Of a stretch of DNA of 64,000 bases, positions 10,972-54,359 are shown one piece after another. The number at the start of each line of letters is the position of its first letter. Positions within the stretch are counted from its first letter, which is position 1. This DNA is from a virus, in IMG/VR virus record IMGVR_UViG_3300046004_001116, positions 1 to 64,000 of that record, one strand, 5' to 3'. Below the pieces are notes generated by a model. The model did no database searches, was not told the DNA's origin, and saw only the letters and a list, made by a program, of their open reading frames with translations. A program made the position numbers and the translations under genes.

Positions 10972-13773
10972 ATGTCTGTTAGATTAAGCGACATGTGGTC
11001 ATTAAGCACAGATGTATTTAATTACGATAACGTTATTACAGCAGAAGGGCCTTCAGCTAACTGGTTTTACTCAACATGGAACACAAGTAATACATCAACG
11101 GGGTCAAGCACAGCAACTCAAATTAAGTTACCTCTTGTTGCAACAGGTACTTATAACTTTGTGGTTGACTGGGGCGATGGAACTTCACCGGAAACAATAA
11201 CTGCTTGGAATCAAGCAGAAACAACACATACATACGCAACAGCTGCCACTTATATAATTCGTATCACAGGAACTATCACTGGATGGCAATTTAATAATGG
11301 AGGAGATAAACTTAAACTATTAAGTATATCACAATGGGGCACTTTAAGACCTGGGAATAACACTGCTATATTTATGGGTTGTGGTAATTTAAGGCTGGAC
11401 GATGTAAGAGGTGTTCTTGATACAACAGGAATGACAAGTTTCTATCGACTGTTTCATAGCTGTACAAGTCTAGTGCAAGTTAATAGGATTAATGAATGGA
11501 ATACTTTTAATGTTACAAACATGGGGTCAACTTTTGACTCGTCTTACAGGTTTAACGACAACATTGGAAATTGGAATACTTTTAATGTTACTACTTTTGA
11601 ATTAATGTTTGCACACGCAGGTGCGTTTAATAACGGTGGTAGTCCTGATATTGATAATTGGAACACTGCAAATGTCACAACAATGAGATTTATGTTTGGT
11701 ACCGACGGAACTGTACCCGGGGGTACTGCTATGAAATTTAATCAACCTATAGGAACATGGGACACAACAAAAGTTACAAATATGTCGGGAATGTTTGCTA
11801 GAAATAATGCGTTTAATCAAGACATATCAACTAAAGTTGTTACTAAAACTGTTTTTGAGGTTACTCAAAATTTCACTGTGAAATACGGAGTTACATTTTC
11901 CGCATGGGACACTAAAAATGTAACTGACATGGAAAGTATGCTAAGCGCCGCTGTGGTAGGGAACGGGCAATTTAATCAATACATTGGTAATTGGAACACT
12001 TCTAAAGTTACTCTAATGAACTCAATGTTTAACGAACAAACTGAATTTAACCAAGACGTGTCGACTAAAGTTGTTACTGTTGGCAGTGATACATATACTG
12101 CTTGGGATACTAAAGAAGTTACTAATATGTCGTTTATATTTAGTGGAACTACTGCAGTAGGTGGTTTAGGTAAATTTAATCAAAACATAGGTAATTGGAA
12201 CACTTCTAAAGTTACCAACATGGGTAGGATGTTTTTACAGAAGAATAAATTTAACCAAGACATATCAACTAAAGTTGTTACTGTTAATGGAGTTTCATAC
12301 ACTGCTTGGGATACTAAAGAAGTTACTGATATGGCATTTATGCTATACACATCTTCACCTGATGGCACAGCATATGGAGAATTTAATCAGAACATTGGTA
12401 ATTGGAACACTTCTAAAGTAACAACTTTATATGCTACTTTTTATAACCAAAAATCTTTTAATCAGAATATTGGAACAAAGTACACTACTGTTAATGGAGT
12501 TTCATACACTGCTTGGGATACTAAAGAAGTTACTAACATGTCATTTACATGTAGAGTAGGATCATCTATAGGTGGGGGCGTATTCAATAATGGTGAGTCT
12601 AATGACATTAAGGACTGGAACACATCAAAAGTTACTACGATGCAAAGTATGTTCAGCGGGCAACCCTTATTTAATCAAAATATTGGAACAAAGGCTTCTA
12701 CTGTTGGTTTTACTACTTGGACTGCTTGGGACACTTTAAATGTAACAAATATGTCATATATGCTTAATGCGTATGTTGCAACAAATACAAACGGTGGAGT
12801 ATTTAACAACGGTGGTAGTGGAACTTTTGGTAATTGGAATACATCAAAAGTTACAGATATGAGTTATATGTTACAGGATCAAGTTTTGTTTAACCAAACT
12901 ATGAACACCATGTTAGCTACTATTAATAGTGTTACATATACTGCTTGGGATACTTTAAACGTAACAAATATGGCGGGTCTTTTTGCTGTTTTCAACAAAA
13001 CGGGAATTTTTAATCAAAACCTTGGAAGTTGGAATACATCAAAAGTTACTAACATGAATGCTATGTTTATTGCACAAGTTCTTTTTGATAAAAATATAGG
13101 AACAAGGGAAGTAACAGTTGGGGCTTCTACATACACTGCTTGGAACACTTTAAATGTAACAAATATGTCATTTATGTTTAGCGCAAACCCTTTAAACTCA
13201 TCTTCACAAGGAGTATTTAATAATGGTGGTGCCACCGCGCTTACAAGTTGGAATACATCAAAAGTAACAACCTTTCAGGCAATGTTCCAAAATCAACCGC
13301 TGTTTAATCAAAATTTAAGAACAAAGACAGTTACGGTTGGCGCAAGTACTTACACTGCATGGGATACTTTGGACGCTACTAGCATGAGATATATGTTTTT
13401 TAATAAGACAGGAAATACCGCAAGCCAATTTAACCAAAACATAGGGAATTGGAACACTGCTAAAGTTACAGATATGACTGCTATGTTTTGTAACGCTGCT
13501 AGTTTTAATCAAAACATAGATAATTGGAATGTTTCATTAGTAACCGCATTTAATTCACCTACAGCATTAAATGAAACCTTTGCAGACGGAACAGCAATAT
13601 CAACTGCAAATTACGATGATATACTTGAAGGATGGTCATTGAGGCCAGTTCTTGCAAATAAAGTAATTAGTTTTGGAACAACTAAATATAGTGCAGCTGC
13701 AGTATCGGAAAGAGCAATATTAACATCAGCTCCAAATAATTGGACAATAGTTGATGGCGGTTTAGCAGCATAA
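10972..13773 (+). CDS. DUF285/BspA-like repeat protein, probable virion adhesin
   Basis: A 933-residue protein. A PKD-like N-terminal region (VDWGDGTSPE near residue 69) is followed by about 15 copies of the DUF285 repeat, with a core like FNQNIGNWNTSKVTNM and MF, spread from about residue 150 to 880. DUF285 repeats are common on surfaces of Bacteroidota and Mycoplasma and mediate adhesion. In a phage the likely role is a fibre or receptor-binding surface. The DNA repeats are diverged in the third codon position but recombination could still shuffle them. Confidence 0.75.
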   Translation: MSVRLSDMWSLSTDVFNYDNVITAEGPSANWFYSTWNTSNTSTGSSTATQIKLPLVATGTYNFVVDWGDGTSPETITAWNQAETTHTYATAATYIIRITGTITGWQFNNGGDKLKLLSISQWGTLRPGNNTAIFMGCGNLRLDDVRGVLDTTGMTSFYRLFHSCTSLVQVNRINEWNTFNVTNMGSTFDSSYRFNDNIGNWNTFNVTTFELMFAHAGAFNNGGSPDIDNWNTANVTTMRFMFGTDGTVPGGTAMKFNQPIGTWDTTKVTNMSGMFARNNAFNQDISTKVVTKTVFEVTQNFTVKYGVTFSAWDTKNVTDMESMLSAAVVGNGQFNQYIGNWNTSKVTLMNSMFNEQTEFNQDVSTKVVTVGSDTYTAWDTKEVTNMSFIFSGTTAVGGLGKFNQNIGNWNTSKVTNMGRMFLQKNKFNQDISTKVVTVNGVSYTAWDTKEVTDMAFMLYTSSPDGTAYGEFNQNIGNWNTSKVTTLYATFYNQKSFNQNIGTKYTTVNGVSYTAWDTKEVTNMSFTCRVGSSIGGGVFNNGESNDIKDWNTSKVTTMQSMFSGQPLFNQNIGTKASTVGFTTWTAWDTLNVTNMSYMLNAYVATNTNGGVFNNGGSGTFGNWNTSKVTDMSYMLQDQVLFNQTMNTMLATINSVTYTAWDTLNVTNMAGLFAVFNKTGIFNQNLGSWNTSKVTNMNAMFIAQVLFDKNIGTREVTVGASTYTAWNTLNVTNMSFMFSANPLNSSSQGVFNNGGATALTSWNTSKVTTFQAMFQNQPLFNQNLRTKTVTVGASTYTAWDTLDATSMRYMFFNKTGNTASQFNQNIGNWNTAKVTDMTAMFCNAASFNQNIDNWNVSLVTAFNSPTALNETFADGTAISTANYDDILEGWSLRPVLANKVISFGTTKYSAAAVSERAILTSAPNNWTIVDGGLAA

Positions 13774-14019: not shown

Positions 14020-14033
14020 CAATAAATTAAAAC

Positions 14034-14510
14034 GGGCCATTCTGGAATTGATTGGCGGAACGTTATTCTTTGACATGCAGGCAGAGTTACATGGAAACTC
14101 TATAATAACCTATGGAACTTTTAAATGGCGATAAGTCAACAATGACCTTCGAAGATGCTATGGCATTCGTTGGTGCTTCTGAGTACGCGGTAGCTGCTTA
14201 ATGAAGGCGGGTCTCAATTACCTAGGAACAGAAATTTGAACACGGGAAAAAGGGTTAATAGTACCACATGCCGATGACCAATCAGTAACCCTGAGCGAAA
14301 GCAACAGACCACGGAGAAATCCAAGGAGCGCTGTTAATTGGAAGTCACCACCTTAATGTCAGGTGTATAATATCATTGAGTTGGTTGTTTGTTCGGAACT
14401 GGGTTAACTGAACTCTCTATTTTTGAAGTACTGAATAAACTTCATAAGCCTGTGAATGAATGCATCGGATAATCCGAACAAGATGTGGGGGTCGAGTCCC
14501 ACATGGTCCA
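14034..14510 (+). ncRNA. ssrA: tmRNA (transfer-messenger RNA)
   Basis: The 5' end GGGCCATTCTGGAATTGAT matches the tmRNA start pattern and pairs with the 3' end TGGTCC, leaving A as discriminator and no encoded CCA. The 3' tRNA-like part has a T-arm with GTCGAGT. An internal frame near 14127-14202 ends in EYAVAA and two stops, close to the usual tag end YALAA. About 477 nt is longer than a typical tmRNA. A phage copy would rescue stalled ribosomes and tag their products for proteolysis. Confidence 0.9.
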
Positions 14511-14518
14511 CTACTAAT

Positions 14519-14576: not shown

Positions 14577-14590
14577 GTGATATATACTCA
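14577..14590 (+). promoter_or_regulatory. Late-promoter-like box of the phosphonate operon
   Basis: GTGATATATACTCA lies 12 bases before the PEP mutase gene, so the phosphonate genes are expected to be expressed late with the capsid genes. Confidence 0.6.
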
Positions 14591-14601
14591 AATACAAATA
14601 T

Positions 14602-15501
14602 ATGAAAACAACTAAAGCACAAAAACTTAGAGACTTACTAAGTAGTGATCAATTAGAATTTATCATGGAGGCCCACAGTGGGTTATCAGCAAAGATAGTT
14701 GAAGAAGCAGGGTTCAAAGGAATTTGGGCAAGCGGTTTATCAATGTCAGCTGTACATGGTGTAAGAGACAATAATGAACTTTCCTGGACTGATGTAGTGA
14801 ATGCACTTAAGTTCATGAGTAATGCAACCACAATTCCAATCCTTCTTGACGCAGATACAGGCTACGGAAGTTTTAATAACTTCGTGCAATTGCTACAGGA
14901 ACTTGTTAAGCATGATATTGGTGGAGTTGTCATTGAGGATAAAATCTTTCCTAAAACCAATTCTTTCATTAACGGAGAAAAACAACAACTTGCAGATATT
15001 GTGGAGTTCTCTAGAAAAATCACAGCAGGTAAAGATTACTTAAAATCTATAGGCCGTGAAGATTTTGTAATCTGTGCAAGATTAGAAGCATACATTACAG
15101 GTTTAGGCCACGAAGAAGCGATGAAACGTGCTATTGCATATGCTGAAGCTGGCGCTGATGCTATTCTTTGTCATAGTAAACTCGCAGATTCTTCAGAGAT
15201 TGATATCTTTATGAATGATTGGAAAAGAACTCTAGTTGGAGAAACTACTCCAATTATTATTGTTCCTACCAAATATTATAAAGTTCCAACTCAACATTTT
15301 GCTGAAACTGGTGTTTCATTAATCATTTGGGCAAATCACAACTTAAGATCTAGCATTAAGTCAATGCAAGAAACTACACAACAAATTTTTGCTGACTCAT
15401 CATTAATTAATGTAGAACAAAATGTAGCAAAACTTGAAGAAGTTTTCCGTTTACAAAATGCTGAAGCATTAGAAATTGCTGAAAAGAAATATCTTCCTTA
15501 A
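14602..15501 (+). CDS. pepM: Phosphoenolpyruvate phosphomutase
   Basis: A 299-residue enzyme of the isocitrate lyase/PEP mutase superfamily. It carries the PEP mutase signature EDKIFPKTNS (residues 112-121) that separates mutases from lyases, and the metal-binding DADTGYG (83-89). It rearranges phosphoenolpyruvate to phosphonopyruvate, creating the C-P bond, the committed step of nearly all natural phosphonates. It is the first gene of a five-gene operon whose other members draw the equilibrium forward. Length is normal for the family and the start is the first ATG after the late box. Confidence 0.95.
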   Translation: MKTTKAQKLRDLLSSDQLEFIMEAHSGLSAKIVEEAGFKGIWASGLSMSAVHGVRDNNELSWTDVVNALKFMSNATTIPILLDADTGYGSFNNFVQLLQELVKHDIGGVVIEDKIFPKTNSFINGEKQQLADIVEFSRKITAGKDYLKSIGREDFVICARLEAYITGLGHEEAMKRAIAYAEAGADAILCHSKLADSSEIDIFMNDWKRTLVGETTPIIIVPTKYYKVPTQHFAETGVSLIIWANHNLRSSIKSMQETTQQIFADSSLINVEQNVAKLEEVFRLQNAEALEIAEKKYLP

Positions 15502-15510
15502 AACTTTAGA

Positions 15511-16629
15511 ATGAATACAAAACAATTTGGTGATTGGTTGCAAGAATTGGAATTTGATGTCTTTACTGGCGTTCCATGTTCTTATCTTAAGTATTTGATT
15601 AACTATGCTTATTCTGACTGCACTTATATTAATGCACCTAATGAAGGTGATGCAGTAGCAGTTGCAGCGGGTGCCTATCTTGCAGGTAAACGTCCAGTGG
15701 TTCTTTTACAAAACTCTGGATTAGGAAATCTTATTTCTCCGCTTACTTCACTTAATCATATCTTTAAGATTCCTTTTCTTGGATTTGTTTCTTTAAGAGG
15801 TGGGCCTGACGATGAACCTCAGCATGAACTGATGGGTAAGATTACTCGAGAAATGCTTCAAGTAACACAAACACCAATTGCTACATTAAGTAAAGATCTA
15901 GAAGAAGCTAAAATGCAAATCATGGCTGCTCGAGATTTTATTGATGCAAATAAAATTCCATTCTTTTTTATCGTTGAAAAGGACACGTTTGATCCCTACA
16001 AGTTATCGATAGACTCAAAGCCAAAATATTCTAAAGGTACAAGCAAAACTTACGGTAAAGGTAATGAAGAATTATCATCAAGAACCGAAGCATTAGAAGA
16101 AATAGTTAGATCACGCGGTAAAGCTGGTGTTATTGCAACTACGGGAATGACAGGCCGAGAACTATATGAAGTTGAAGATCATGAGCAACATTTATACATT
16201 GTAGGATCTATGGGTTGTACATCAGCAATAGGTTTAGGAACTGCAATGTTTAGTGATAAGCCAGTCATTGTAGTTGATGGAGACGGCGCAGCACTTATGC
16301 GTTTAAGCGGTATGCCAATGTTAGGTCACGAAAAGCCGGATAATCTTTTACATATTCTTTTAGATAATAATGAACACAATTCAACTGGTGGACAGTCTAC
16401 AATATCTGCTATTATGAACTGGCCGCTATTTGCAGAATCTATTGGGTATCAAGCAATTACGGTTAGAACGTTAAAGCAACTTAATCATGCAATTGAAGAA
16501 TGGCATATGAATCCCAGCTTGACGTTTATTTACATGAAGATTAATAACACAGTAAAAGATAACCTTGGTAGACCTAAAGTAAAACCACATCAAGTTGGTT
16601 CACGTTTTAGAAACTACATTACATCATAA
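15511..16629 (+). CDS. ppd: Phosphonopyruvate decarboxylase
   Basis: A 372-residue thiamine-diphosphate enzyme. The catalytic Glu lies in NEGDA (E45), and the cofactor motif is DGDGAAL (256-262) followed by NNEHNSTGGQ (286-295). It decarboxylates phosphonopyruvate to phosphonoacetaldehyde and makes the unfavourable mutase step irreversible. Length matches Ppd enzymes rather than the larger acetolactate synthases. It starts 9 bases after pepM. Confidence 0.93.
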   Translation: MNTKQFGDWLQELEFDVFTGVPCSYLKYLINYAYSDCTYINAPNEGDAVAVAAGAYLAGKRPVVLLQNSGLGNLISPLTSLNHIFKIPFLGFVSLRGGPDDEPQHELMGKITREMLQVTQTPIATLSKDLEEAKMQIMAARDFIDANKIPFFFIVEKDTFDPYKLSIDSKPKYSKGTSKTYGKGNEELSSRTEALEEIVRSRGKAGVIATTGMTGRELYEVEDHEQHLYIVGSMGCTSAIGLGTAMFSDKPVIVVDGDGAALMRLSGMPMLGHEKPDNLLHILLDNNEHNSTGGQSTISAIMNWPLFAESIGYQAITVRTLKQLNHAIEEWHMNPSLTFIYMKINNTVKDNLGRPKVKPHQVGSRFRNYITS

Positions 16630-16632
16630 GGT

Positions 16633-17310
16633 ATGGAAAATTGGAAAAACATTTGGAACCGTAAACCAGCTAAAGATGTTTATGATCTGCAAGATCTTAT
16701 AAACGCAAATGGGTTTGACACATCAAGTTTGCTAGTCAAAAATCTAACTGACTATATTGAATCTGTAAAAACTAGAATGGGAATGAAGCAAGGTCAGTCA
16801 GTATATGAAGTTGGCTGCGGCTGTGGTTCTATTCTTTATCTTTTACAACAGATGGGTTTACAAGTTGGTGGTTCTGATTATTCTGACTCACTTATAAAGA
16901 TAGCAAAAGACTTGAACATATCTAATGATATTAAAGTAAGTGTTGCGAATGGTATTCCTGTTGAACCTAAGTATGATTATGTTATAGCAAATAGTGTGTT
17001 TCAGTATTTCCCAGATCTTAATTATGTTGAAGAAGTAGCGTGTCTTATGATGAATAAGTCTATAAGTGGTTCTATTGCAATCTTAGACATAAATGATTTA
17101 TCTAAGCAAGAACTTTATTTAAGTATTCGTCGTAAAGCAGAACCTGACTATGATGAAAAGTATAAAGACTTTCAACATCTATTTATTGACAAGCAATTTT
17201 GGATTAAATTGGGTTCTAAATTAAATTGGAAAGTTATCATAGAAGATCAAGACATACCAGAGTACAAAAATTCTAAATTTAGATACAACATATTTATAAC
17301 AAAAGCATGA
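16633..17310 (+). CDS. SAM-dependent methyltransferase in the phosphonate operon
   Basis: A 225-residue class I methyltransferase. Motif I is YEVGCGCGS near residue 61, with an acidic post-I residue in GSDYSDS. It begins 3 bases after ppd and overlaps the next gene by 4 bases, so it belongs to the pathway. N-methylation of aminoethylphosphonate, or O-methylation of a phosphonate, is a reasonable guess; the substrate cannot be read from sequence. Confidence 0.75.
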   Translation: MENWKNIWNRKPAKDVYDLQDLINANGFDTSSLLVKNLTDYIESVKTRMGMKQGQSVYEVGCGCGSILYLLQQMGLQVGGSDYSDSLIKIAKDLNISNDIKVSVANGIPVEPKYDYVIANSVFQYFPDLNYVEEVACLMMNKSISGSIAILDINDLSKQELYLSIRRKAEPDYDEKYKDFQHLFIDKQFWIKLGSKLNWKVIIEDQDIPEYKNSKFRYNIFITKA

Positions 17311-18035
17311 ACACAGCAATAATTTTAGCGGCAGGTTTAGGAAGCCGTTTTGGTGATATTACAAAGTACGTTCCTAAAGGAATGATTAAAGTAGGGAAGC
17401 AACCTATGATCCAATCCTCAATTGAAGCTATTCTTGAATTAGGATATGATGAGATCATAATTGTAACAGGACACTGTTCTAGTGTTTATGAAGAGTTTTG
17501 TAAAAAGTGGGGCAATGTAAAGATTGTAAAGAATCCTTTCTATTCAACAACTGGAAGTCTATTCTCACTTTACATGGGGCTAATTGAAGCAAAAATGTAT
17601 TACCCACCGGTGAATATTACAATTTTTGAGTCGGATATTATTTATGATAAGAATATCTTAGTAGATATGAAAGCTGAAAACTGTATGGTGGTTTCTGCAC
17701 CAAGAGCTGCAGGTTTAGGTGATGAATGCTGGACTCAAATTGAAGACGGAGTAATTACCAAGATTACTAAAGACAAGAATGATTGTGCAAATCCTGAATA
17801 TGAAATGGTTGGAATTACTAACATTACATTAAGTACAGTGAGCACATTGGCAAATTTAGAAAAAATGATTAAACTTTCTATTGACATGCTATATGAAAAC
17901 AATCAACAGGATTATGAATCCTTATTCACAGAAATGAATATCTTTAAGCCGTATGTAACTACTAAGTTATGGGCAGAGATGGACAACATCAAACATTTAG
18001 AAGATGCAATAACCAAAGTATTACCTAACATATGA
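17307..18035 (+). CDS. pntC: PntC-like CTP:phosphonate cytidylyltransferase
   Basis: A 242-residue nucleotidyltransferase related to LicC and PntC. The nucleotide loop is LAAGLGSRFG (residues 7-16) with a following KY.PKG, then NPFYSTTGSLFSLY near residue 81, and the metal-binding FESD near residue 109. In known clusters PntC activates 2-aminoethylphosphonate to CMP-AEP for transfer to glycans and is often fused to AEP transaminase; here it precedes the transaminase gene with a 4-base overlap. A phosphocholine-type cytidylyltransferase is the alternative, less likely in this context. Confidence 0.8.
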   Translation: MNTAIILAAGLGSRFGDITKYVPKGMIKVGKQPMIQSSIEAILELGYDEIIIVTGHCSSVYEEFCKKWGNVKIVKNPFYSTTGSLFSLYMGLIEAKMYYPPVNITIFESDIIYDKNILVDMKAENCMVVSAPRAAGLGDECWTQIEDGVITKITKDKNDCANPEYEMVGITNITLSTVSTLANLEKMIKLSIDMLYENNQQDYESLFTEMNIFKPYVTTKLWAEMDNIKHLEDAITKVLPNI

Positions 18036-19111
18036 AAAGAAACATTTTATTAAACCCTGGGCCAGCATGTACATCAGACGCAGTAAAACAAGCTGTACTT
18101 GATATTGGTGATGTTTGTCCTAGAGAAATAGAATTTGGCACTCTTATGAAGAATGCGTCTGAAAAGATTAAAACTCACTTAACATCGGATACTGATGAAT
18201 ATGAAGCTGTTCTTTTTACTACTTCAGGAACTGGCGCAATGGAATCTATTATAAGTTCATTACCTAAAGAAACCGACCGAGTTTTAAACATTGTGAATGG
18301 CGAGTACGGAAAACGTATTGGAGAAATGCTTGAGGTTTACGGAATAAGAAATAGCACATTGGATTTTGGTTATGATGCAATTGATTTAGACGTAATTGAA
18401 AAAGTATTGCAATCTGTGGAGTTTTCTCATATCTGTGTAGTTCATTGCGAAACTACCACTGGTGTAATTAACGATATAGAAAAGCTTGCGCAAATTGCTG
18501 CTAAGAAAAATGTTAAAGTGATTGTTGATGCTATGAGTTCTGCTTTTGCATATCCTATTAACATGAAGAAATGGGGAATTGATTTTCTTGCTTGCAGTTC
18601 AAACAAGTTAGTTCAAGGATTAGCTGGAATTGGAATTGTGGTTGGTTCTAAAAAACAAATCCAACGTTGCCACAAAAGAAACTTGTATCTTTCATTAAAA
18701 GACCAAGCTGATTACTTTAATAAAAGCAATCAAATGAGGTTTACTCCACCTGTTCAAATACTGAATGCTTTAGACGTGGCACTTGATGAATTAGCTGAAG
18801 AAGGATTGGCAAAACGTTACAAAAGATATGAAAAGCTAAATCTTTATATACGTAAGAAAATGGAAGCGTGTGGGTTCACTCCAGTTATTCCATTAAATGA
18901 ATCATCAATTATAATTACTGCATATCATGAGCCAGCTGGTTTTGATTTTGAAAACTTCCATTCTTATATGAAAGAAAGAGGTTTTATTGTTTATCCAGGA
19001 AAACTCACAGATGGCAAAAGTTTTAGAATTGCTAACATTGGCAATATAACATTAGATGATGTATATGAATTTTTAACATTAGTTAAAGATTATATGAAAA
19101 ACACAATCTAA
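18032..19111 (+). CDS. phnW: 2-Aminoethylphosphonate transaminase
   Basis: A 359-residue class V aminotransferase. LLNPGPACTS at residues 6-15 is the substrate loop, TSGTGAME (64-71) binds PLP phosphate, D166 of VDAMSS contacts the pyridine ring and K192 of SSNKLVQG is the PLP lysine. The family interconverts phosphonoacetaldehyde and 2-aminoethylphosphonate. In a catabolic operon it would sit with phosphonatase; here, with pepM and ppd, the direction is synthesis. It is the last gene of the operon. Confidence 0.9.
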   Translation: MKRNILLNPGPACTSDAVKQAVLDIGDVCPREIEFGTLMKNASEKIKTHLTSDTDEYEAVLFTTSGTGAMESIISSLPKETDRVLNIVNGEYGKRIGEMLEVYGIRNSTLDFGYDAIDLDVIEKVLQSVEFSHICVVHCETTTGVINDIEKLAQIAAKKNVKVIVDAMSSAFAYPINMKKWGIDFLACSSNKLVQGLAGIGIVVGSKKQIQRCHKRNLYLSLKDQADYFNKSNQMRFTPPVQILNALDVALDELAEEGLAKRYKRYEKLNLYIRKKMEACGFTPVIPLNESSIIITAYHEPAGFDFENFHSYMKERGFIVYPGKLTDGKSFRIANIGNITLDDVYEFLTLVKDYMKNTI

Positions 19112-19117: not shown

Positions 19118-19130
19118 GTGATATATACTC
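19118..19130 (+). promoter_or_regulatory. Late-promoter-like box
   Basis: GTGATATATACTC, close to the box before pepM, opens the capsid gene region. Confidence 0.55.
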
Positions 19131-19234: not shown

Positions 19235-21100
19235 ATGAATAATAACAATGTATTAATGATCCTTGAGCGTTCAGGGTCTAATCTTGAGGTTAACAAGTCA
19301 AACAACGAATATGTTCTTGAAGGGATATTCGCTCAGTTTGGTGTTGAGAACAATAATCATCGTATCTACGAAGAAAAGGAATATCTTCCACACTTGGACT
19401 ACTTAAAGAAAAAGATTTCAGAGAACCGCCTTTTGGGTGAACTTGACCACCCAGATAAGTTTGATATTTCATTATCAAAAGTAAGTCACCTTATTGAAGA
19501 TGTTAAGTATGATCCAAAGAAACGTCAGATCATCGGCCGTATTAAATTACTTGATACACCAAGTGGACAAATTGCTAAGAACCTTGTAGATACAGGTGTT
19601 CCAATTTCAATTTCTTCACGTGCTGCTGGAGTAGTTGGAGAAAATAAGAAAGTTCAAATTAAAAGAATCTTTACTTATGATCTTGTAGCTGATCCTGGGT
19701 TTGAAAACGCACAGATGAAAAAAATTAACGAAAGTTTCGGATTCAGCAATGAAGATGATACTGTTGCTATTTACGACATGGGTGCAGAATTTCCTTCTTT
19801 CTTAGAAGCTGTTAATACAGAAGAGATATATACTGAAACCGCAGAAAAAACTGAACCAAAAATGGAAAAAAACGACATAGTTTCTGTAGAAGAAATGAAC
19901 AAGTATTCGGTAGTGATTAAAAATGAAATTGAGAAAATCAATTCACGTTTAGATAAAATTGCTGAATCATCTGATAAAGACGAGAAAATTGCATCTCTTA
20001 CTGAAGAACTTGATAATCTTCGTAAATATACAAACTATCTTGCTGAATCACAAAACAAAGCAATCTCTCATCAAAACTACATTGCAGAGAATTTAGGTAA
20101 TTCAATTGCATATGCTGAGCAAATTGCTGAGAAAGCAGACCAAGGTTTACAATACTTAGAGCATGTTGCTGAAAAGGCTGATCGTGGTATTCAGTATTCT
20201 GAATTAATCGCTGAGAACCAAACAAACTCTAACAAGTATGTAAACGAGCACATTGCTGCTAAACTTGACGAGGCTATCCGTTACGGAGAATATCTTGCAG
20301 GTAAAATTAATGAAACTGTTGCTTATGCACAATACGTTGCTGAACACACAGACAACAGTATCAAATATGGTGAGTATCTTTCAGAGAATGCTACATCTAA
20401 GGAAGACTTCAAAAATCTAACAGAATACGCTGAGTATATGTTTGAAAACTTTGGAGCTAAACCAGACGGTAAATCTCAAGATATTACTGAAGAAACAAAA
20501 ACAAACAAAGGTATCATCGCCAACGCAATCGTTGAAGGTGAATCTATCAAGTCTCGTTATACGTTACTTGATGAAAAAATAGAAGCGGTATTGGAATCTG
20601 TTCAAAAACAAAAAACAGATGATAAATCTAATAACGCTGATTATCCATTCCTAACATTTTTGGGCGAAAGCAAACGCGACGAATTCATCGCCCTAAATGA
20701 GACCGAAAAGAAAAGGGTCGCTAAAGCTCTCGATGCTAAACCATCGTTCAATGAAGCAAATATTGTAGCGGTTTGGGAATCTGCTCTACAAAACGTTGAA
20801 GTAAACGAAGAATGGCTAACTAACATGCCAGCAGAATATTTTCCTTTATGGGAAAATGCATCAGCTGAAGTTAGAGACCGTATCGCTCGTCAATCTCGCG
20901 TATTTAGATTAGACAGCCCTTACCAAATCAAAAACTTTTGGCAAACACGTGGTTTAGGTAAACCAGAGGATTTCGTAGCAGAAAGTTTAAACGAATCAAA
21001 AAGAACTGAAACTGCTGTTGTAAAACAAACAGTATTAGGTTACGATAATGATTATGTAGACGCTATGAAAGCTAAACTAGGTAAATCGTTTAGTCGCTAA
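19235..21100 (+). CDS. Prohead protease (T4 gp21-like) fused to a repeat scaffold domain
   Basis: A 621-residue protein. Residues 25-170 match the T4 prohead protease family (peptidase S80), with the catalytic pair probably H72 in GELDHPD and S127 or S128 in SISSRA. T4 gp21 is about 212 residues. The extra part is a helical region (about 225-415) made of roughly 18-residue repeats such as YGEYLAGKINETVAYAQ, then a globular C-terminus. A fusion of protease and core scaffold in one chain is inferred; it would need self-cleavage during maturation. Confidence 0.8.
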   Translation: MNNNNVLMILERSGSNLEVNKSNNEYVLEGIFAQFGVENNNHRIYEEKEYLPHLDYLKKKISENRLLGELDHPDKFDISLSKVSHLIEDVKYDPKKRQIIGRIKLLDTPSGQIAKNLVDTGVPISISSRAAGVVGENKKVQIKRIFTYDLVADPGFENAQMKKINESFGFSNEDDTVAIYDMGAEFPSFLEAVNTEEIYTETAEKTEPKMEKNDIVSVEEMNKYSVVIKNEIEKINSRLDKIAESSDKDEKIASLTEELDNLRKYTNYLAESQNKAISHQNYIAENLGNSIAYAEQIAEKADQGLQYLEHVAEKADRGIQYSELIAENQTNSNKYVNEHIAAKLDEAIRYGEYLAGKINETVAYAQYVAEHTDNSIKYGEYLSENATSKEDFKNLTEYAEYMFENFGAKPDGKSQDITEETKTNKGIIANAIVEGESIKSRYTLLDEKIEAVLESVQKQKTDDKSNNADYPFLTFLGESKRDEFIALNETEKKRVAKALDAKPSFNEANIVAVWESALQNVEVNEEWLTNMPAEYFPLWENASAEVRDRIARQSRVFRLDSPYQIKNFWQTRGLGKPEDFVAESLNESKRTETAVVKQTVLGYDNDYVDAMKAKLGKSFSR

Positions 21101-21128: not shown

Positions 21129-23012
21129 ATGAACTTGATTAACGAATCTCAAGTGTTTGAAACTTGGGCTCCAATTCTTGAAGAAAAAACTGGAATCACA
21201 GAATCAAACAAATTAAAGTGGATGTCAACTTACGCACATTACCACTCATTAAATGAAGGATTTTCATATCCTCAAGCATCTTTACTTAATACTCCAGGTA
21301 TGGGTAACGTTGCGCCAGCTTCTACTGTTGCAGGTGGTGCTGCTTCTTTCTACGGTGCAGGTTCTCAAGGGTCTGGTGATAAATTCCCATCTCTTTTACC
21401 TTTAGCAATTCAAGTTGCTGCAAGAACTGTAGGATTTGACATTGTATCAGTTGTACCTATGAACGGACCATCTGGAGTATTAACTTACTTAGATTACGTT
21501 TATGCAGGTGGTAGAGATGTTAAAATGCCAGGTATTCCAAATACTACTGCTAGTAACTTTACAGATAAATTCTCTGTGTTTAAATTAAACACAAGTGGAA
21601 CTACTAATGTAAACGCAACTTTCAAAACTTATCTTGAAACAGCTAATACTGAATCATATGTAGTATTCACTAATGTAGTTCCTGCGGTTGCTCCTAACCA
21701 AGCAAATGCTCTTCTTTGTCAATACGTTGGTAAATCTCGTATCGATGGTTTCCCAATCTTTAGATTAGTTGGAGAATCTTCTAACGTAACTGTTTTAACA
21801 GCTCAAGACTTTACTGCAATTGAAGCTACTACTCAAAGTGTTTCTTACGCTCAAGTACTTGATGGTACAGCTACAGCATATACAACTACTGTAACTAAAG
21901 CTGGTAACACTTACACTACAGGTGCTCTTGCAATCTCTGGTGCTGCTGCAAGTATAACTACATACGCTGAATTAGTTAGAGCTCTTGAAGATCATATCTT
22001 TGGTTTCTCTGGTGCAGGACCACAAGATGCTGATCCTTACCAAGGTGATGGAACTAACGGTTTAACTTCTTACGAACCAATGCGTAGAGGTGTAGGTGAA
22101 ACTACTCAATACAGAACTATGGGTCTTACAGCATTCACGAAATTCGTTGAAGCTGAAACATTCCAAGTTGCTGCTACTGTAACAACTGAGCAAATTCAAG
22201 ATCTTAACCGTCAATACGGTATTGATGTAATCTCTATGATGGAAAATGCATTAGTAAATGAAATCTCTCAATCAATCAACAAACACATCTTATCTAGAGC
22301 GTTTGCATTAGGATGGGAAAATCACGTTACATTCAACAGTGCAGAAGGAGTTAACTTAAACTTATCTCTTGTATCTCAAGTTGGTACTGTAAATGCTCGT
22401 TTCCAAGGTGCTGTTCCAACATCAATTGGTAACTTACAACAACTAGCTTGTCCAGCATTTGCTAACTACGGTGGAACAACTGCTAACTTTGAAAACCAAG
22501 GTACTGTTCAAAGACGTATCCAATCTAAAGTTTTAGCTGCTGCTAACGTAGTTGCTCAAAGAGGTCGTAGAGGACCAGGTAACTTTGTGGTTACTAACCT
22601 TCAAATTGCTACTGCATTACAAGATTCAGCTCAATTCACATTCTACCCATTAGCTAACACAGTAAACCAAAACAATGGTGCTCTTTATCCATTAGGAACT
22701 CTTGCTGGTTTAACTATCTACGTAGACCCTAACATGAAATATGATGATACTCGTATCCTTGTAGGTCGTAAAGGTGCTGATGAAGAGCCAGGTCTTAAAT
22801 TCATGCCTTACTTAATGGCTGAATCAATCCAAACTATTGCTGAAGGAACTATGGCTCCTAAGCTTGCAGTTAAATCTCGTTACGCTCTTGTTGAGGCAGG
22901 TTTCCACCCAGAAACTCAATACTTAACATTACTTGTTAACTTGAAATCTGTTGGTACAGTTTCTACATCACAATACTGGGATTTACTTCCATCTGCTGCT
23001 ACTATTGCATAA
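21129..23012 (+). CDS. Major capsid protein (T4 gp23-like)
   Basis: A 627-residue HK97-fold capsid protein of the gp23 lineage. Features include GPSGVLTYLDYVY near residue 117, an EQIQDLNRQYGID segment near 359 and RRGPGNFVVTN near 482. It directly follows the protease gene, as in T4-like module order, and precedes a strong terminator. Codon use is noticeably more regular (GCT, GGT, AAC) than in neighbours, as expected for a very highly expressed gene. Confidence 0.92.
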   Translation: MNLINESQVFETWAPILEEKTGITESNKLKWMSTYAHYHSLNEGFSYPQASLLNTPGMGNVAPASTVAGGAASFYGAGSQGSGDKFPSLLPLAIQVAARTVGFDIVSVVPMNGPSGVLTYLDYVYAGGRDVKMPGIPNTTASNFTDKFSVFKLNTSGTTNVNATFKTYLETANTESYVVFTNVVPAVAPNQANALLCQYVGKSRIDGFPIFRLVGESSNVTVLTAQDFTAIEATTQSVSYAQVLDGTATAYTTTVTKAGNTYTTGALAISGAAASITTYAELVRALEDHIFGFSGAGPQDADPYQGDGTNGLTSYEPMRRGVGETTQYRTMGLTAFTKFVEAETFQVAATVTTEQIQDLNRQYGIDVISMMENALVNEISQSINKHILSRAFALGWENHVTFNSAEGVNLNLSLVSQVGTVNARFQGAVPTSIGNLQQLACPAFANYGGTTANFENQGTVQRRIQSKVLAAANVVAQRGRRGPGNFVVTNLQIATALQDSAQFTFYPLANTVNQNNGALYPLGTLAGLTIYVDPNMKYDDTRILVGRKGADEEPGLKFMPYLMAESIQTIAEGTMAPKLAVKSRYALVEAGFHPETQYLTLLVNLKSVGTVSTSQYWDLLPSAATIA

Positions 23013-25515: not shown

Positions 25516-25971
25516 ATGGACTTTAAAATGTTTGAAGAAACCGCTGGTGAAGTAACTACGGTTTACGTAAGAGAACCACAAGGAATGCTAAGAAAATCTG
25601 CAGCTGTAAAAATCTGGGATAAAATTGGCGTTGGTAAATCTGGAGACGGATTTGGTGTCTATGCTATTGCAGATATTGCAGATAATGAGTTAATAGAGGA
25701 ATGCTCGGTTATAGAAATGACCCGAGATGAATTTAATAGCAAGGTATTAATGGATTATATGTTTAAAATTTCCGGTGATCTATATGTACTTGCATTAGGG
25801 AACGGATCTATCTATAACCATAGAAACCAACCAAACGCACGTTGGGAATACGACGGAGAAAAGAAAATACTTAAAATAGTTGCTACTCGTCCTATTGAAA
25901 TGGGTGAAGAACTGTTTATATCATACGGTAGAGATTACTTCAAAACTCGTGAAACAAATATGAAAGCATAA
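25516..25971 (+). CDS. SET-domain protein (putative lysine methyltransferase)
   Basis: A 151-residue protein with SET motifs in order: GDGFGVYAIADI near residue 44 (SAM-binding GxG), LGNGSIYNHRNQPNARW near residue 95 (the NH...PN core) and GEELFISYG near residue 131. SET enzymes methylate protein lysines. It lies inside the capsid-core gene run, with 2 bases to the previous gene and a 1-base overlap to the next, so a virion protein or host DNA-binding protein may be the substrate. That link is inferred. Confidence 0.8.
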   Translation: MDFKMFEETAGEVTTVYVREPQGMLRKSAAVKIWDKIGVGKSGDGFGVYAIADIADNELIEECSVIEMTRDEFNSKVLMDYMFKISGDLYVLALGNGSIYNHRNQPNARWEYDGEKKILKIVATRPIEMGEELFISYGRDYFKTRETNMKA

Positions 25972-30715: not shown

Positions 30716-30790
30716 ACGAGATTAGCTCAGTTGGTTCAGAGCAACTCTTTTACACGGAGAAGGTCACAGGTTCGAATCCTGTATCTCGTA
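30716..30790 (+). tRNA. tRNA-Val(TAC)
   Basis: Acceptor ACGAGAT/ATCTCGT, D-arm with GG, anticodon TAC in loop TTTACAC, T-loop TTCGAAT, discriminator A. No CCA encoded. Confidence 0.9.
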
Positions 30791-30793
30791 CTA

Positions 30794-30884
30794 ATGAATT
30801 AAACGGTCTAAGGATTAGGACGCTGGCGTAAGGCACCGGCTGAAACGCCGACCATCGTTGGAGAGATTCTACTCTCTAATTCAT
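30794..30884 (+). ncRNA. tRNA-like RNA with GCGTAAGGC loop
   Basis: Ends ATGAATTA and TAATTCAT pair perfectly. It has a D-arm-like GTC/GAC hairpin with a GG loop, a hairpin GCTGG/CCGGC capped by CGTAAGGCA, and a T-arm-like GAGAG/CTCTC with a 6-base loop. There is no usable anticodon. The GCGTAAGGC loop recurs in other RNAs of this array. Confidence 0.5.
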
Positions 30885-30990
30885 AACACACTGCAGTGAT
30901 TGCCGGCCACACGCATCGGTTCTTAACGGGAAATCGTTCTCGTCGTTAGGTGAACAGACCGGACAAATTCCTTAGGTGGTGCTAGGGTCA

Positions 30991-31067
30991 ACTGCTGCTA
31001 TAGACGAATTGGTTAAGTCGTCGCCCTTTCAAGGCGGAGGTTGCGGGTTCAAGTCCCGTTGGCAGTA
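30991..31067 (+). tRNA. tRNA-Glu(TTC)
   Basis: Acceptor ACTGCTG/TGGCAGT, anticodon TTC in loop CTTTCAA, T-arm GCGGG/CCCGT with TTCAAGT, discriminator A. About 100 bases upstream (30885-30990) show hairpins but no gene. Confidence 0.8.
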
Positions 31068-31073
31068 CAACAT

Positions 31074-31148
31074 GAGCGCTGAAGCACAATCGGACGTGCA
31101 CCTGGCATACGGCCAGTAGGATATAGGTTCGAATCCTATCTTTGCTCC
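31074..31148 (+). tRNA. tRNA-like gene with non-canonical anticodon loop
   Basis: Good D-arm (GCAC/GTGC) and T-arm (ATAGG/CCTAT), weak acceptor (GAGC/GCTC plus mismatches). The anticodon arm CTGG/CCAG closes loop CATACGG, so U33 is replaced by A; the nominal anticodon is TAC. Decoding ability is doubtful. Confidence 0.5.
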
Positions 31149-31156
31149 AAATACTT

Positions 31157-31230
31157 TCTCCTGTCGTCTAGTCGGCTCAGGACGCTGCCCTTTCACGGCG
31201 GTAACGCGGGTTCGAATCCCGTCGGGAGAA
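31157..31230 (+). tRNA. tRNA-Glu(TTC), second copy
   Basis: Acceptor TCTCCTG/CGGGAGA, loop CTTTCAC, T-loop TTCGAAT, discriminator A. Confidence 0.92.
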
Positions 31231-31236
31231 CAACAC

Positions 31237-31323
31237 TACCGAATGGTGTAATCTATGTGTTAAAAGAACAGCGCTGGCTGAGACCAGAGTTCCACCGTAA
31301 TTGTAGTAATCGGTGATTCGGTA
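31237..31323 (+). ncRNA. Small RNA closed by an 8-bp stem
   Basis: TACCGAAT and ATTCGGTA pair perfectly. Inside are hairpins CTGG/CCAG (loop CTGAGA) and CACCG/CGGTG. The outline resembles a tRNA without a recognisable anticodon or T-loop. Confidence 0.45.
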
Positions 31324-31332
31324 AACAATATT

Positions 31333-31404
31333 GGTTTCGTAGCTCAGAGGCAGAGCGGCACCCTGTTAAGGTGAGGGTCGGGATTTCGATATTCCCCGAG
31401 ACCG
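31333..31404 (+). tRNA. tRNA-Asn(GTT)
   Basis: Acceptor GGTTTCG/CGAGACC, anticodon GTT in CTGTTAA, T-loop TTCGATA, discriminator G. Confidence 0.88.
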
Positions 31405-31417
31405 CAATTAAAAAATA

Positions 31418-31584: not shown

Positions 31585-31590
31585 CAAGAT

Positions 31591-31664
31591 TCCTCAGTAG
31601 CTCAGTTGGTTAGAGCGTCGGACTGTTAATCCGTAGGTCCTAGGTTCGAGTCCTAGCTGGGGAG
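31591..31664 (+). tRNA. tRNA-Asn(GTT), second copy
   Basis: Acceptor TCCTCAG/CTGGGGA, loop CTGTTAA, T-loop TTCGAGT, discriminator G. Confidence 0.92.
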
Positions 31665-31669
31665 CAAAA

Positions 31670-31908: not shown

Positions 31909-31912
31909 CAAA

Positions 31913-48810: not shown

Positions 48811-49203
48811 ATGATACATACATTTATTATTGATGTTGACGATACCATTTTAACCACGCCTCTCAAAGAAGATGGAAAGTATGATTATGATAATTCTCAG
48901 CCTATTCCACTAACCATTGAGAGGATTCGTAGTCTTAAAAAGGATGGTCATAGCATCATATTGTTTACAGCTCGCGGTATGAAAACATTTGCCGGAGATG
49001 TTAAAAAGATTAAGAAAGAACATGAAGATCGTTTACTTAATTGGCTTAAAGTCAATGACTGTCCTTACGATTCTATTATCTTTGGTAAACCTTGGGGTCC
49101 TAATCCTGTTTACGTAGATAATCGTAATTTATCTTTACATGCATTTGCTACAAGTGCTCCAGAATTTTTTGAACCAATCATCCTAGTCGAAAATAAACTA
49201 TGA
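48811..49203 (+). CDS. HAD phosphatase of sugar-biosynthesis type
   Basis: A 130-residue HAD protein with DVDDT (residues 8-12), FTARG near 51 and YVDNR near 105. Similar short HADs accompany nucleotidyltransferases in capsule and heptose pathways. Its stop overlaps the start of the bifunctional gene by 4 bases, so the two probably act in one pathway. Confidence 0.78.
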   Translation: MIHTFIIDVDDTILTTPLKEDGKYDYDNSQPIPLTIERIRSLKKDGHSIILFTARGMKTFAGDVKKIKKEHEDRLLNWLKVNDCPYDSIIFGKPWGPNPVYVDNRNLSLHAFATSAPEFFEPIILVENKL

Positions 49204-50792
49204 CATCAGTAATTATTCCAGCCGCTGGTTTAGCCAGTAGAATGAAACCTCTTTCACGAGGTGTAAGTAAAGCAATGATCCCAGTTAACGGTCGTCCGTT
49301 AATTTCATATATCATTGAAACCCTACTTAAAGATTATCCAACTAGAGAAATCGTAATCGTTGAGAATGAACTTGGCGATATTAAAGAATTTGTTAACCGA
49401 GTCTATAATACTTCCAATATTAAAACTGTTGTTCAAGAGGAAAAACTTGGACCGCTGCATGCAATATCTTTAGGTCATAATGCCTTGGAGAATAAAGAAT
49501 CTGGTGTAACAGTTTGGTTAGGTGATACTATCTGTCTTGATGAATTTCCCTTTCATAAAGATTTCTTAGCAGTTCAATCTGTTGAAGATCCTCATCGTTG
49601 GTGTCTTGTAGACCAAGACGGTAAACTGTATGATAAACCTGATACTGCAGTTCCTACAGATTTAGCATTAATTGGTGTGTATAACTTTGCTAATCGTAAA
49701 GCATTTGATACTTCTATGAAAGTAGGCATGAAAAAACCAACACATAAAGGTGAGTACCAAATTGCTGCTCTATTAGAAAACTATATCTTAAGCTATAAAA
49801 TGCAACTTGTAGGTACTAATGAATGGTATGATTGTGGCGAACTTAATACTTATTACGAATCTAAAGCAAAATTGCTTCAAAGAACTGCCAGATCATTTAA
49901 CAAGATCAAGGTAGATACATTCTATAATATCATTTCTAAATCTAGTGATTCTCCGGAAAAGCAAAGAAAGATACAAGATGAAAAAGAATGGTTCTTAGCT
50001 CTAGATCCTTGGGCATCACAATTCATTCCAAGAATACTTCCGTCTGAGGTTGGTGAGTTATCAATGTCATTGGAACCGGGTATTGCTTTAAACGAAATTA
50101 TTGTGTATGATAATTTAAGAACAGATATTTGGCATGATATTATACGTAAGATTGTAAACATTCATCATGGTGTCTTTAAAAGACCTTCTAAAATATCAGA
50201 AGATCGCATGAAAGAAGAATGCTTCCGTGCTTATGTTCTAAAAAATGTAAACCGTCTTGACGGCATGAAGGATACTATTATTACTTCTCAAGATAAGTTT
50301 CAGATGGTTAGAGATTTCGTTGAGCAAACTGGCTACATGTTATGTTCAGATCCTCATCCATACTGGTCACAAATCATGCATGGTGATTCTCATTTAGGAA
50401 ATCTTATTTATGATCCACACTCAGGTTCTATTAAATTTGTTGATCCTCGAGGTTCATTTGGTAATCTTAAAGGTACTGAAGGCGACATGCGATATGATAT
50501 GGCAAAATTAATGCAAGATTTTTACTGCGGGTACAGTATGATTATGGCAGATCGTTATATCTTATTTGGAGAAACTTGTTCTATTGACTGGGTTCCTGGA
50601 ACGGAAAACTTATCAGCTATGCTTGAAGAGCAACTTGTAGAAAACTTTTACGATGTAAACTTACTTAAACGATTGGCAATTGTTTTATTAATCACAGCAA
50701 TTCCTTTTCATACTGATGATAAAAATCGACAAGAAGCATTTTGGTTAAGAGGTATTGAACTAATCGAGGCTATAAAAGACGGAGATAAATAA
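49200..50792 (+). CDS. Bifunctional nucleotidyltransferase-kinase
   Basis: A 530-residue fusion. Residues 1-230 are a sugar-1-phosphate nucleotidyltransferase (IPAAGLASRMKP at 6-17, GDTICLDE near 106, DCGELNTY near 212). The second half is an aminoglycoside-phosphotransferase/choline-kinase-like domain with MHGDSHLGNLIYD near 394 and KFVDPRG near 412. Such a protein can phosphorylate a small molecule or sugar and activate it with NTP. With the adjoining HAD it probably builds an activated sugar for the glycosyltransferases downstream. Confidence 0.8.
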   Translation: MTSVIIPAAGLASRMKPLSRGVSKAMIPVNGRPLISYIIETLLKDYPTREIVIVENELGDIKEFVNRVYNTSNIKTVVQEEKLGPLHAISLGHNALENKESGVTVWLGDTICLDEFPFHKDFLAVQSVEDPHRWCLVDQDGKLYDKPDTAVPTDLALIGVYNFANRKAFDTSMKVGMKKPTHKGEYQIAALLENYILSYKMQLVGTNEWYDCGELNTYYESKAKLLQRTARSFNKIKVDTFYNIISKSSDSPEKQRKIQDEKEWFLALDPWASQFIPRILPSEVGELSMSLEPGIALNEIIVYDNLRTDIWHDIIRKIVNIHHGVFKRPSKISEDRMKEECFRAYVLKNVNRLDGMKDTIITSQDKFQMVRDFVEQTGYMLCSDPHPYWSQIMHGDSHLGNLIYDPHSGSIKFVDPRGSFGNLKGTEGDMRYDMAKLMQDFYCGYSMIMADRYILFGETCSIDWVPGTENLSAMLEEQLVENFYDVNLLKRLAIVLLITAIPFHTDDKNRQEAFWLRGIELIEAIKDGDK

Positions 50793-53621: not shown

Positions 53622-54359
53622 ATGAAAGATTATTCAAAATTTTGGGATGCGGTCTACGTAATCAATCTTGATTTTAGACAAGACCGCTGGGAAAGCATAC
53701 AGGCAAAAGCAGCGGTCATAGGATTACCTATAGAACGCTGGAATGCTGTTAAAGCAACTGATGTTAATTTAGAAAAGGACCGAGTTGGAATCCGAGTGAA
53801 AAAGACTTCATGTGTTGCTTGCGCTTTATCACATTATGGAATTTATCGTGATGCACTATCTAAAGGATATGATAACATACTTGTTCTTGAAGACGACGCT
53901 GATCTTCCTCTTGACTTATATGAACAAGTGGATAATATGTTTAACACAAATGAATATTACTTAAAGAATTATGATCTTATCTATTTAGGATGTGCTGACA
54001 AATATCCAAATGTTTCTTTAACAGAAAATTTAGCATTATCACAATTTACATTACTTACGCATGCACTTCTATTTTCTAAAAGAGGTATGGAAAAAGTAAT
54101 AGAAATCATTGATACTCAAGATGACGGTAAATGTCGTATGAGTGTTGATGTATTCCTTGCAGAAAGATTACAACCGCTAAATAAAACTTTTCAAGCGGTT
54201 CCTTCAATTATAACAACTATTACAAGCACATCAGATATCGCAGGTTGGAAAAGAACTTGGAGCTCTATGCTATCTGACTGCAAACATCAAGGATTAAAGA
54301 ATCCGAAAAAATGGGAATCTTTTGAGAAAAGAGCCAAATCAATAAAACAATACTTATAA
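53622..54359 (+). CDS. Family 25 glycosyltransferase
   Basis: A 245-residue GT25 protein: YVINLDFRQDRW near residue 12, CALSHYGIYRDAL near 66 and NILVLEDDADLP near 84 (the EDD metal site). GT25 enzymes add galactose or glucose to lipooligosaccharide or to hydroxylysine of collagen. A collagen-like fibre is encoded at 2428, which makes a role in fibre glycosylation worth considering. Confidence 0.85.
   Translation: MKDYSKFWDAVYVINLDFRQDRWESIQAKAAVIGLPIERWNAVKATDVNLEKDRVGIRVKKTSCVACALSHYGIYRDALSKGYDNILVLEDDADLPLDLYEQVDNMFNTNEYYLKNYDLIYLGCADKYPNVSLTENLALSQFTLLTHALLFSKRGMEKVIEIIDTQDDGKCRMSVDVFLAERLQPLNKTFQAVPSIITTITSTSDIAGWKRTWSSMLSDCKHQGLKNPKKWESFEKRAKSIKQYL

What the first reader, a model, noticed from the sequence alone, without database searches (positions are those of the whole stretch)
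14577..19111. Phage-encoded pathway from PEP to CMP-aminoethylphosphonate under a late promoter
Five overlapping or adjacent genes encode PEP mutase, phosphonopyruvate decarboxylase, a methyltransferase, a PntC-like cytidylyltransferase and AEP transaminase, with the diagnostic motifs intact (EDKxxxKTNS, DGDG, LAAGLGSR, PLP Lys192). Known enzymology then gives PEP to phosphonopyruvate to phosphonoacetaldehyde to AEP to CMP-AEP. The operon starts with the same box as the capsid genes and lies directly before them, which suggests use on the virion, phage DNA or cell surface late in infection. A full C-P bond pathway ending in nucleotide activation would be unusual for a phage.
Basis: partly seen in the sequence, partly recalled or inferred. 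Interest (0 to 1): 0.95.

Follow-up and report, generated by a model that had tools for sequence, protein, structure and literature searches.

The report
Phage-encoded phosphonate tailoring pathway
A large bacterial virus carries, right beside its capsid genes, all the enzymes that bacteria use to build and activate 2-aminoethylphosphonate (a molecule with a direct carbon-phosphorus bond), plus a LicD-type enzyme that probably attaches it; ten other viral contigs carry related kits, so decorating surfaces with phosphonates seems to be a recurrent and so far unreported viral strategy.

Summary
Five genes at 14602-19111 encode PEP mutase, phosphonopyruvate decarboxylase, a methyltransferase, a PntC-type cytidylyltransferase and AEP transaminase; family models, catalytic residues and a structure model support all but the methyltransferase's substrate. 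The cytidylyltransferase matches Treponema PntC better than LicC and keeps PntC's two AEP-contacting glutamates. An identical TGATATATACT box precedes this operon and the prohead protease-capsid genes. The record is an 86-kb piece of a T4-like phage.

Two results go further. (1) The phage also has a LicD transferase (47916-48683) heading a glycan cluster; its model matches FKRP. In the nearest relative (PEP mutase 76% identical) a licD gene overlaps pepM by 17 nt. (2) Ten further IMG/VR contigs carry pepM; all hold LicD or another CDP-alcohol-type transferase, one fuses cytidylyltransferase to LicD, several probably make hydroxyethylphosphonate instead of AEP, and several sit among capsid genes.

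Best reading: CMP-AEP is made late in infection and LicD attaches AEP to a glycan or protein, most likely of the virion. Chemistry to CMP-AEP is well supported; the acceptor is inferred. LicD has a T4-like capsid-targeting N-terminus, unexplained. I found no published report in the papers searched.

The parts
14578..14588 (+). TGATATATACT box, putative late promoter of the phosphonate operon
   Evidence: Exact copies at 14578, 19119 and 26937 in the window and at 80802 of the record; enriched over shuffles
14602..15501 (+). pepM: phosphoenolpyruvate mutase (PEP to phosphonopyruvate)
   Evidence: TIGR02320 344 bits, above cut-off; best PDB match M. edulis PEP mutase 1e-105; EDKIFPKTNS motif
15511..16629 (+). 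ppd: phosphonopyruvate decarboxylase (to phosphonoacetaldehyde), TPP enzyme
   Evidence: TIGR03297 355 bits, above cut-off; matches both subunits of PDB 9iz3
16633..17310 (+). SAM-dependent methyltransferase of the pnt cluster, substrate unknown (perhaps AEP or an intermediate)
   Evidence: Generic methyltransferase domains; 36% identical over its length to a methyltransferase between pepM and ppd in Viridibacillus soli
17307..18035 (+). pntC: CTP:2-aminoethylphosphonate cytidylyltransferase (AEP to CMP-AEP)
   Evidence: Best PDB sequence match T. denticola PntC-AEPT 9e-30 full length; R14, K24, E108, D110, K155, E204 conserved; model best match 6pd2, TM 0.85, LicC 0.74
18032..19111 (+). aepT/phnW: AEP transaminase (phosphonoacetaldehyde to AEP)
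   Evidence: TIGR03301 349 bits against cut-off 361; best PDB match the AEPT domain of T. denticola PntC-AEPT, 1e-75; K192, D166, R332 invariant
19119..19129 (+). Second copy of the TGATATATACT box, before the head genes
   Evidence: Exact match
19235..21100 (+). Prohead protease (Peptidase_S77, T4 gp21 type) with long C-terminal extension
   Evidence: PF03420 and PHROG 207
21129..23012 (+). Major capsid protein, gp23 type
   Evidence: PF07068; 38-43% identical to Lak megaphages and LR756500
47916..48683 (+). LicD-family CMP-alcohol phosphotransferase, proposed phosphonyl transferase; N-terminus resembles a T4 capsid-targeting sequence
   Evidence: PF04991 37 bits, cut-off 22.6; invariant R70, D78, D80, D82; model matches FKRP, E 3e-7; N-terminal FQEFLTE
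48811..49203 (+). HAD phosphatase resembling capsule-biosynthesis phosphatases, next to LicD
   Evidence: TIGR01689 75 bits, below cut-off 162
49200..50792 (+). Sugar-1-phosphate nucleotidyltransferase fused to a kinase-like domain, next to LicD
   Evidence: PF00483 68 bits; RmlA-like NCBIfam matches; kinase-like part read from the sequence
53622..54359 (+). Family 25 glycosyltransferase of the glycan cluster downstream of LicD
   Evidence: PF01755 43 bits

Best explanation
The phage encodes a complete phosphonate-tailoring (Pnt) system. PepM turns host PEP into phosphonopyruvate, Ppd decarboxylates it to phosphonoacetaldehyde, AEPT aminates it to 2-aminoethylphosphonate (AEP), and PntC activates AEP with CTP to CMP-AEP. 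A LicD-family transferase encoded elsewhere in the same phage (47916-48683) then moves the aminoethylphosphonyl group from CMP-AEP to a hydroxyl of a phage-made glycan or protein. The methyltransferase probably methylates the phosphonate or a precursor. The operon is transcribed late with the head genes, so the most likely acceptor is a glycan or protein of the new virion. Shown here: gene content, conserved catalytic residues, recurrent linkage of PepM, Ppd, cytidylyltransferase and LicD across phages. Inferred: enzyme activities, that this LicD uses CMP-AEP, timing, and the acceptor.
For: Enzymes; PntC residue test and fold. Shared box and placement. LicD in the same phage. Linkage: in L001 (PepM 76% identical) LicD overlaps pepM by 17 nt, shortly after tail sheath and tube genes. 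In two contigs of one metagenome aepT, pepM and ppd are followed by two licD genes. In six more contigs pepM-ppd clusters contain licD and a PF01467-type cytidylyltransferase; L135 has the cytidylyltransferase and LicD in one protein; the one cluster without LicD has a CDP-alcohol phosphotransferase. Structural-gene context: L136 terminase, portal, major head protein, then the cluster; L133 and L135 major head protein, then the cluster. Bacterial precedent: the same four enzymes in order in bacterial loci and LicD-like genes in pnt clusters (PMC6697681).
Against: In this phage LicD is 28.8 kb from the operon and heads its own cluster with a different nucleotidyltransferase (49200), so it might use another activated donor. 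LicD's N-terminus looks like a capsid-targeting sequence, so it may end up inside the head, which fits poorly with modifying an external virion glycan. The AEPT score is slightly under the equivalog cut-off. The acceptor is unknown. The record is a fragment, so other transferases may exist.
Confidence: 0.6

Rival explanations
1. The phage makes CMP-AEP but the group goes onto the host's surface polysaccharide or lipid during infection, through the phage LicD or a host transferase, to block superinfection or protect the infected cell.
For: Bacterial pnt clusters tailor cell surfaces (PMC6697681), and LicD/FKRP-type enzymes act on glycans. One related phage cluster carries a CDP-alcohol phosphatidyltransferase, which suggests a lipid product there. 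The PNAS 2022 survey proposes phosphonate surfaces as protection against viruses (PMC8931226).
Against: The operon shares its box with the head genes, and related clusters lie beside capsid genes in unrelated phages, which is late for surface exclusion. No export gene was recognised next to the operon (inspection).
Confidence: 0.2
2. The pnt operon and LicD are unrelated in this phage: LicD uses a donor from the adjacent nucleotidyltransferase-kinase gene, and CMP-AEP is used by an unidentified or host enzyme.
For: 28.8 kb separation; LicD is next to a HAD phosphatase and an NTP-transferase/kinase fusion. Many viral LicD genes occur without PepM.
Against: In the closest relative LicD and pepM overlap. 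All ten other viral pepM contigs hold LicD or a CDP-alcohol transferase. The 49200 N-domain is nearest to RmlA-type sugar nucleotidyltransferases, with LicC only a weak partial match.
Confidence: 0.15
3. The activated phosphonate modifies phage DNA, as a hypermodified base or sugar.
For: The phage has a C5-cytosine methyltransferase-like gene (54369-55583) and glycosyltransferases, and virus-encoded DNA glycosylation exists (a paper in the reference list of PMC12619734).
Against: LicD/FKRP enzymes are known to act on glycans and lipids (own knowledge). No recognised DNA hypermodification pathway was found, though that was not searched systematically.
Confidence: 0.05
4. The operon makes a free phosphonate as an antibiotic, phosphorus store or host-metabolism switch.
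For: Many phosphonates are bioactive (PMC6697681 abstract).
Against: Activation by PntC and the recurrent LicD partner point to a conjugated product.
Confidence: 0.03

Closest known systems
Bacterial phosphonyl tailoring (Pnt) pathway, e.g. Treponema denticola Ppm-Ppd-PntC-AEPT (Rice et al. 2019, PMC6697681)
   Same: Same four enzymes, same CMP-AEP logic, LicD-like partner genes; PntC and AEPT are nearest to the T. denticola fusion among solved structures
   Different: Encoded by a phage beside the head genes; separate PntC and AEPT proteins; PepM not fused to a nucleotidyltransferase; extra methyltransferase; LicD at a distant locus with a capsid-targeting-like N-terminus
Lic pathway (LicC/LicD phosphocholine transfer) and FKRP (CDP-ribitol transferase)
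   Same: CMP-linked donor and LicD-fold transferase
   Different: Donor is a phosphonate; the PntC residues are Glu108 and Glu204 where LicC has Asp (with PMC6697681)
Fom1-type pathway (PF01467 cytidylyltransferase with PepM, CMP-hydroxyethylphosphonate)
   Same: Other phages found here carry PepM with a PF01467 cytidylyltransferase, fused in L114, and an iron alcohol dehydrogenase in several
   Different: The window phage uses AEPT and PntC instead
Phage virion glycosylation (mycobacteriophages; Freeman et al. 2023, seen only in a reference list)
   Same: Phage-encoded glycosyltransferases thought to act on virion proteins
   Different: No phosphonate or LicD step was found in the papers searched

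Membership tests
PEP mutase (TIGR02320) | Score above the equivalog cut-off and the EDKXXXXXNS motif | tested here: met
   344.2 bits against 319.55; EDKIFPKTNS
Phosphonopyruvate decarboxylase (TIGR03297) | Score above the equivalog cut-off, TPP GDG motif | tested here: met
   355.5 bits against 312.5; VVDGDGAALM
AEP transaminase (TIGR03301) | Score above the equivalog cut-off | tested here: not met
   348.7 bits against 360.8; it is the top family by far, and PRK13479 (NF010006) scores 293.0 against 296
AEP transaminase (TIGR03301) | PLP lysine and active-site residues; closest solved relatives are AEP transaminases | tested here: met
   K192, D166, R332 invariant; top PDB matches are AEPTs
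PntC | Catalytic Arg15, Lys25, Lys153 of T. denticola PntC | tested here: met
   R14, K24, K155
PntC | Glu104 and Glu196 near the AEP amine instead of Asp as in LicC | tested here: met
   E108 and E204 in the alignment with 22 bacterial PntCs
PntC | CMP-AEP formation and preference for AEP over phosphocholine | not testable with these tools
   Needs enzyme assay
LicC | Nearest relative by sequence and fold is LicC | tested here: not met
   6pd1 9e-30 against 1jyk 3e-13; TM 0.85 against 0.74
LicD (PF04991) | Score above the gathering cut-off and conserved aspartates | tested here: met
   37 bits against 22.6; D78, D80, D82 invariant in 27 sequences; FKRP fold
LicD (PF04991) | Transfer of a phospho/phosphonyl group from a CMP-linked donor | not testable with these tools
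   Needs assay with CMP-AEP
T4-type capsid-targeting sequence | Short N-terminal propeptide removed by the prohead protease after a hydrophobic-x-Glu site; protein found in the virion | tested here: inconclusive
   Motif at 19 of 104 N-termini against 3.3 expected; LicD has FQEFLTE; S77 protease present; T4 IPI begins MKTFKEF but does not itself match my pattern; packaging not shown

The most novel reading that the evidence does not exclude
Phages of several unrelated lineages decorate their own virions with phosphonate-bearing glycans (AEP in this phage, hydroxyethylphosphonate in others), made by a phage-borne PepM-Ppd-cytidylyltransferase-LicD module placed among the capsid genes. In the T4-like lineage the LicD transferase is itself packaged in the head and delivered to the next host.
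Probability: 0.35. Interest if true: 0.93.

Novelty: new variant of a known kind. Interest (0 to 1): 0.82.

Why it matters
Biosynthesis of C-P bonds is known from cells; searches of the held literature gave no report of a virus that encodes the pathway through nucleotide activation. If confirmed, viruses would be producers of phosphonates, which matter for phosphorus cycling, and phosphonates would join the chemistries phages use to disguise or stabilise themselves. It also offers a defined set of enzymes in which the still uncharacterised phosphonyl transfer step of the Pnt pathway can be tested, since one phage fuses a cytidylyltransferase to LicD.

Tried and rejected
Contamination or chimera: rejected; the operon is flanked by phage genes and shares their box, and a related phage fragment has tail sheath and tube genes beside licD-pepM. 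INPHARED hits for PepM: two are unverified gut contigs whose genes look bacterial to me, two are annotated prpB, so none counted. LicC identity of the 17307 product: rejected. Methyltransferase in other genomes: only 1 of 261 genomes in the order of Viridibacillus has it, so it is rare and its substrate stays open. Close relatives of the capsid protein in IMG/VR: none found. Capsid-targeting motif on Ppd (FGDWLQE): treated as a chance hit. Rfam and ARAGORN do not call the tmRNA-like region.
Full report
What is there. The window is bases 1-64000 of an 85,919-base virus record. Its head genes are T4-like: a gp21-type prohead protease (19235-21100) and a gp23-type major capsid protein (21129-23012), 38-43% identical to Lak megaphages and other large phages. 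The five genes at 14602-19111 are packed head to tail.

Enzymes. PepM and Ppd pass the NCBIfam equivalog cut-offs; the transaminase falls 12 bits short of its cut-off but AEP transaminase is by far its best family. PepM is nearest to M. edulis PEP mutase among solved structures. PntC and AEPT both have as nearest solved relative the two halves of one protein, T. denticola PntC-AEPT. By sequence the PntC match covers the whole protein at 9e-30 and LicC only residues 4-94 at 3e-13. The residues shown by mutation in PMC6697681 (Arg15, Lys25, Lys153) and the two glutamates near the AEP amine (Glu104, Glu196; Asp in LicC) are R14, K24, K155, E108 and E204 here. A model (mean pLDDT 83) matches PntC with TM 0.85 and LicC with 0.74. 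The chemistry PEP to CMP-AEP then follows from established enzymology.

The methyltransferase. It matches only generic models, but Viridibacillus soli has a homologue, 36% identical over its length, between pepM and ppd in a pnt cluster that also has PntC-AEPT. So it belongs with the pathway, though it is rare. Methylation of AEP is my guess.

Regulation. TGATATATACT occurs exactly at 14578, 19119, 26937 and 80802; sites with at most one mismatch are four times more frequent in the window than in shuffles. The operon and the head genes therefore share a box. Late timing is inferred.

The missing transferase. A LicD protein lies at 47916-48683 (37 bits, cut-off 22.6). Eight positions including three aspartates are invariant over 27 viral LicD proteins. 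Its model (mean pLDDT 72.5, core blocks above 90) matches FKRP, a CDP-ribitol transferase crystallised with CMP (E 3e-7, TM about 0.5). It is followed by a HAD phosphatase, a nucleotidyltransferase-kinase fusion and a glycosyltransferase, so it heads a glycan cluster. A second contig from another metagenome carries this region at 99.99% identity.

Relatives. With one protein as query IMG/VR gave one relative, L001: tail sheath, tail tube, methyltransferase, LicD, PepM (76% identical), with LicD and PepM overlapping by 17 nt. LicD then led to contig 3300033148_005240, a phage with tape measure protein, AEPT, PepM (frameshifted in the record), Ppd subunits and two LicD genes. Profiles of LicD, AEPT and PepM gave, in all, ten other contigs: L001, 3300033148_004210, 3300033148_005240, 3300033153_009691, 3300032070_000632, 3300035698_003935, 3300024433_001125, 3300025889_013162, 3300005935_005922 and 3300001533_001154. 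Nine hold LicD; the tenth (L134) has a CDP-alcohol phosphotransferase. L001 ends inside pepM, so its downstream genes are unknown; the other nine all have Ppd, as one chain or two (in L136 the two Ppd ORFs were read by eye). PF01467-type cytidylyltransferases are present too, fused to PepM in 004210 and to LicD in L135. Six contigs have an iron alcohol dehydrogenase-like gene in the cluster; the best NCBIfam match of the one tested is the phosphonate-associated model TIGR03405, under its cut-off. So those phages probably make hydroxyethylphosphonate, not AEP. Viral hallmark genes were confirmed for L001, 005240, L133, L134, L135 and L136; for 004210, 009691, L131 and L132 I rely on IMG/VR and on reading the ORFs, with only non-structural or weak matches for L131 and L132.

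Placement. In L136 the order is terminase, portal, major head protein, cluster; in L133 and L135 a major head protein precedes the cluster. In the window the operon precedes protease and capsid protein. Repeated placement beside capsid genes in unrelated phages is the main argument for a virion target.

Origin. In a PepM tree the window and L001 pair (100/100) falls inside the bacterial clade, apart from the other phages, which are not one group with it. The module was thus probably acquired more than once. The nearest bacterial PepMs are 62-64% identical, from Bacteroidota and Bacillota, and bacterial loci carry PepM, Ppd, PntC and AEPT together.

The odd N-terminus. Many proteins of this phage start with an aromatic-x-x-aromatic motif ending in an acidic residue, found at 19 of 104 N-termini against 3.3 expected from internal windows (binomial 1e-9). 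T4 internal proteins carry a propeptide that takes them into the prohead and is removed by the protease (PMC7411985); T4 IPI begins MKTFKEF. LicD has FQEFLTE, and L001 LicD a similar extension; both extensions are absent from the two LicD proteins of 005240. If real, LicD is packaged. That could mean action inside the prohead or delivery to the next cell; neither fits simply with an external glycan. I leave this open.

Literature. Searches for phage with phosphonopyruvate, PEP mutase, AEP, LicD or pepM found no report of a phage pnt pathway. One paper lists viral phosphonate-degradation genes, which is the opposite direction (PMC13188868). Most subscription papers are not covered.

Verdict. 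Observation confirmed; chemistry to CMP-AEP about 0.9 likely; LicD as its user about 0.7; virion as target about 0.45. These figures are judgement.

Noticed in passing
window 14033-14512: Looks like an uncalled tmRNA: acceptor-stem-like ends GGGCCAU/AUGGUCC, a T-arm-like GGGGGUCGAGUCCC, an internal reading frame ending EYAVAA-stop, and a terminator-like hairpin after it. ARAGORN and Rfam do not call it; folding pairs the ends but is no more stable than shuffles.
   Followed up: partly
window 42563-43480: GIY-YIG-like ORF within a 1-kb stretch absent from a 99.99% identical contig (L089), so a recently mobile homing endonuclease candidate (domain read by eye).
   Followed up: partly
window 10113, 28337, 28636, 60672 and record 72488-78243: Many small proteins with T4-like capsid-targeting N-termini, suggesting a large set of packaged, perhaps injected proteins.
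   Followed up: partly
window 30716-37838: Array of about 31 tRNA genes in 7 kb with raised G+C.
   Followed up: no
window 25516-25971: SET-domain protein close to the head genes.
   Followed up: no
window 10972-13773: 933-residue protein made of DUF285 repeats, upstream of the phosphonate operon.
   Followed up: no
L114 8758-9978: Ppd beta subunit preceded in the same ORF by a homing-endonuclease-like stretch, perhaps an inserted element.
   Followed up: no
L098-L124: Many viral LicD genes without PepM lie next to PF01467-like cytidylyltransferases, so CDP-alcohol tailoring may be common in phages.
   Followed up: no
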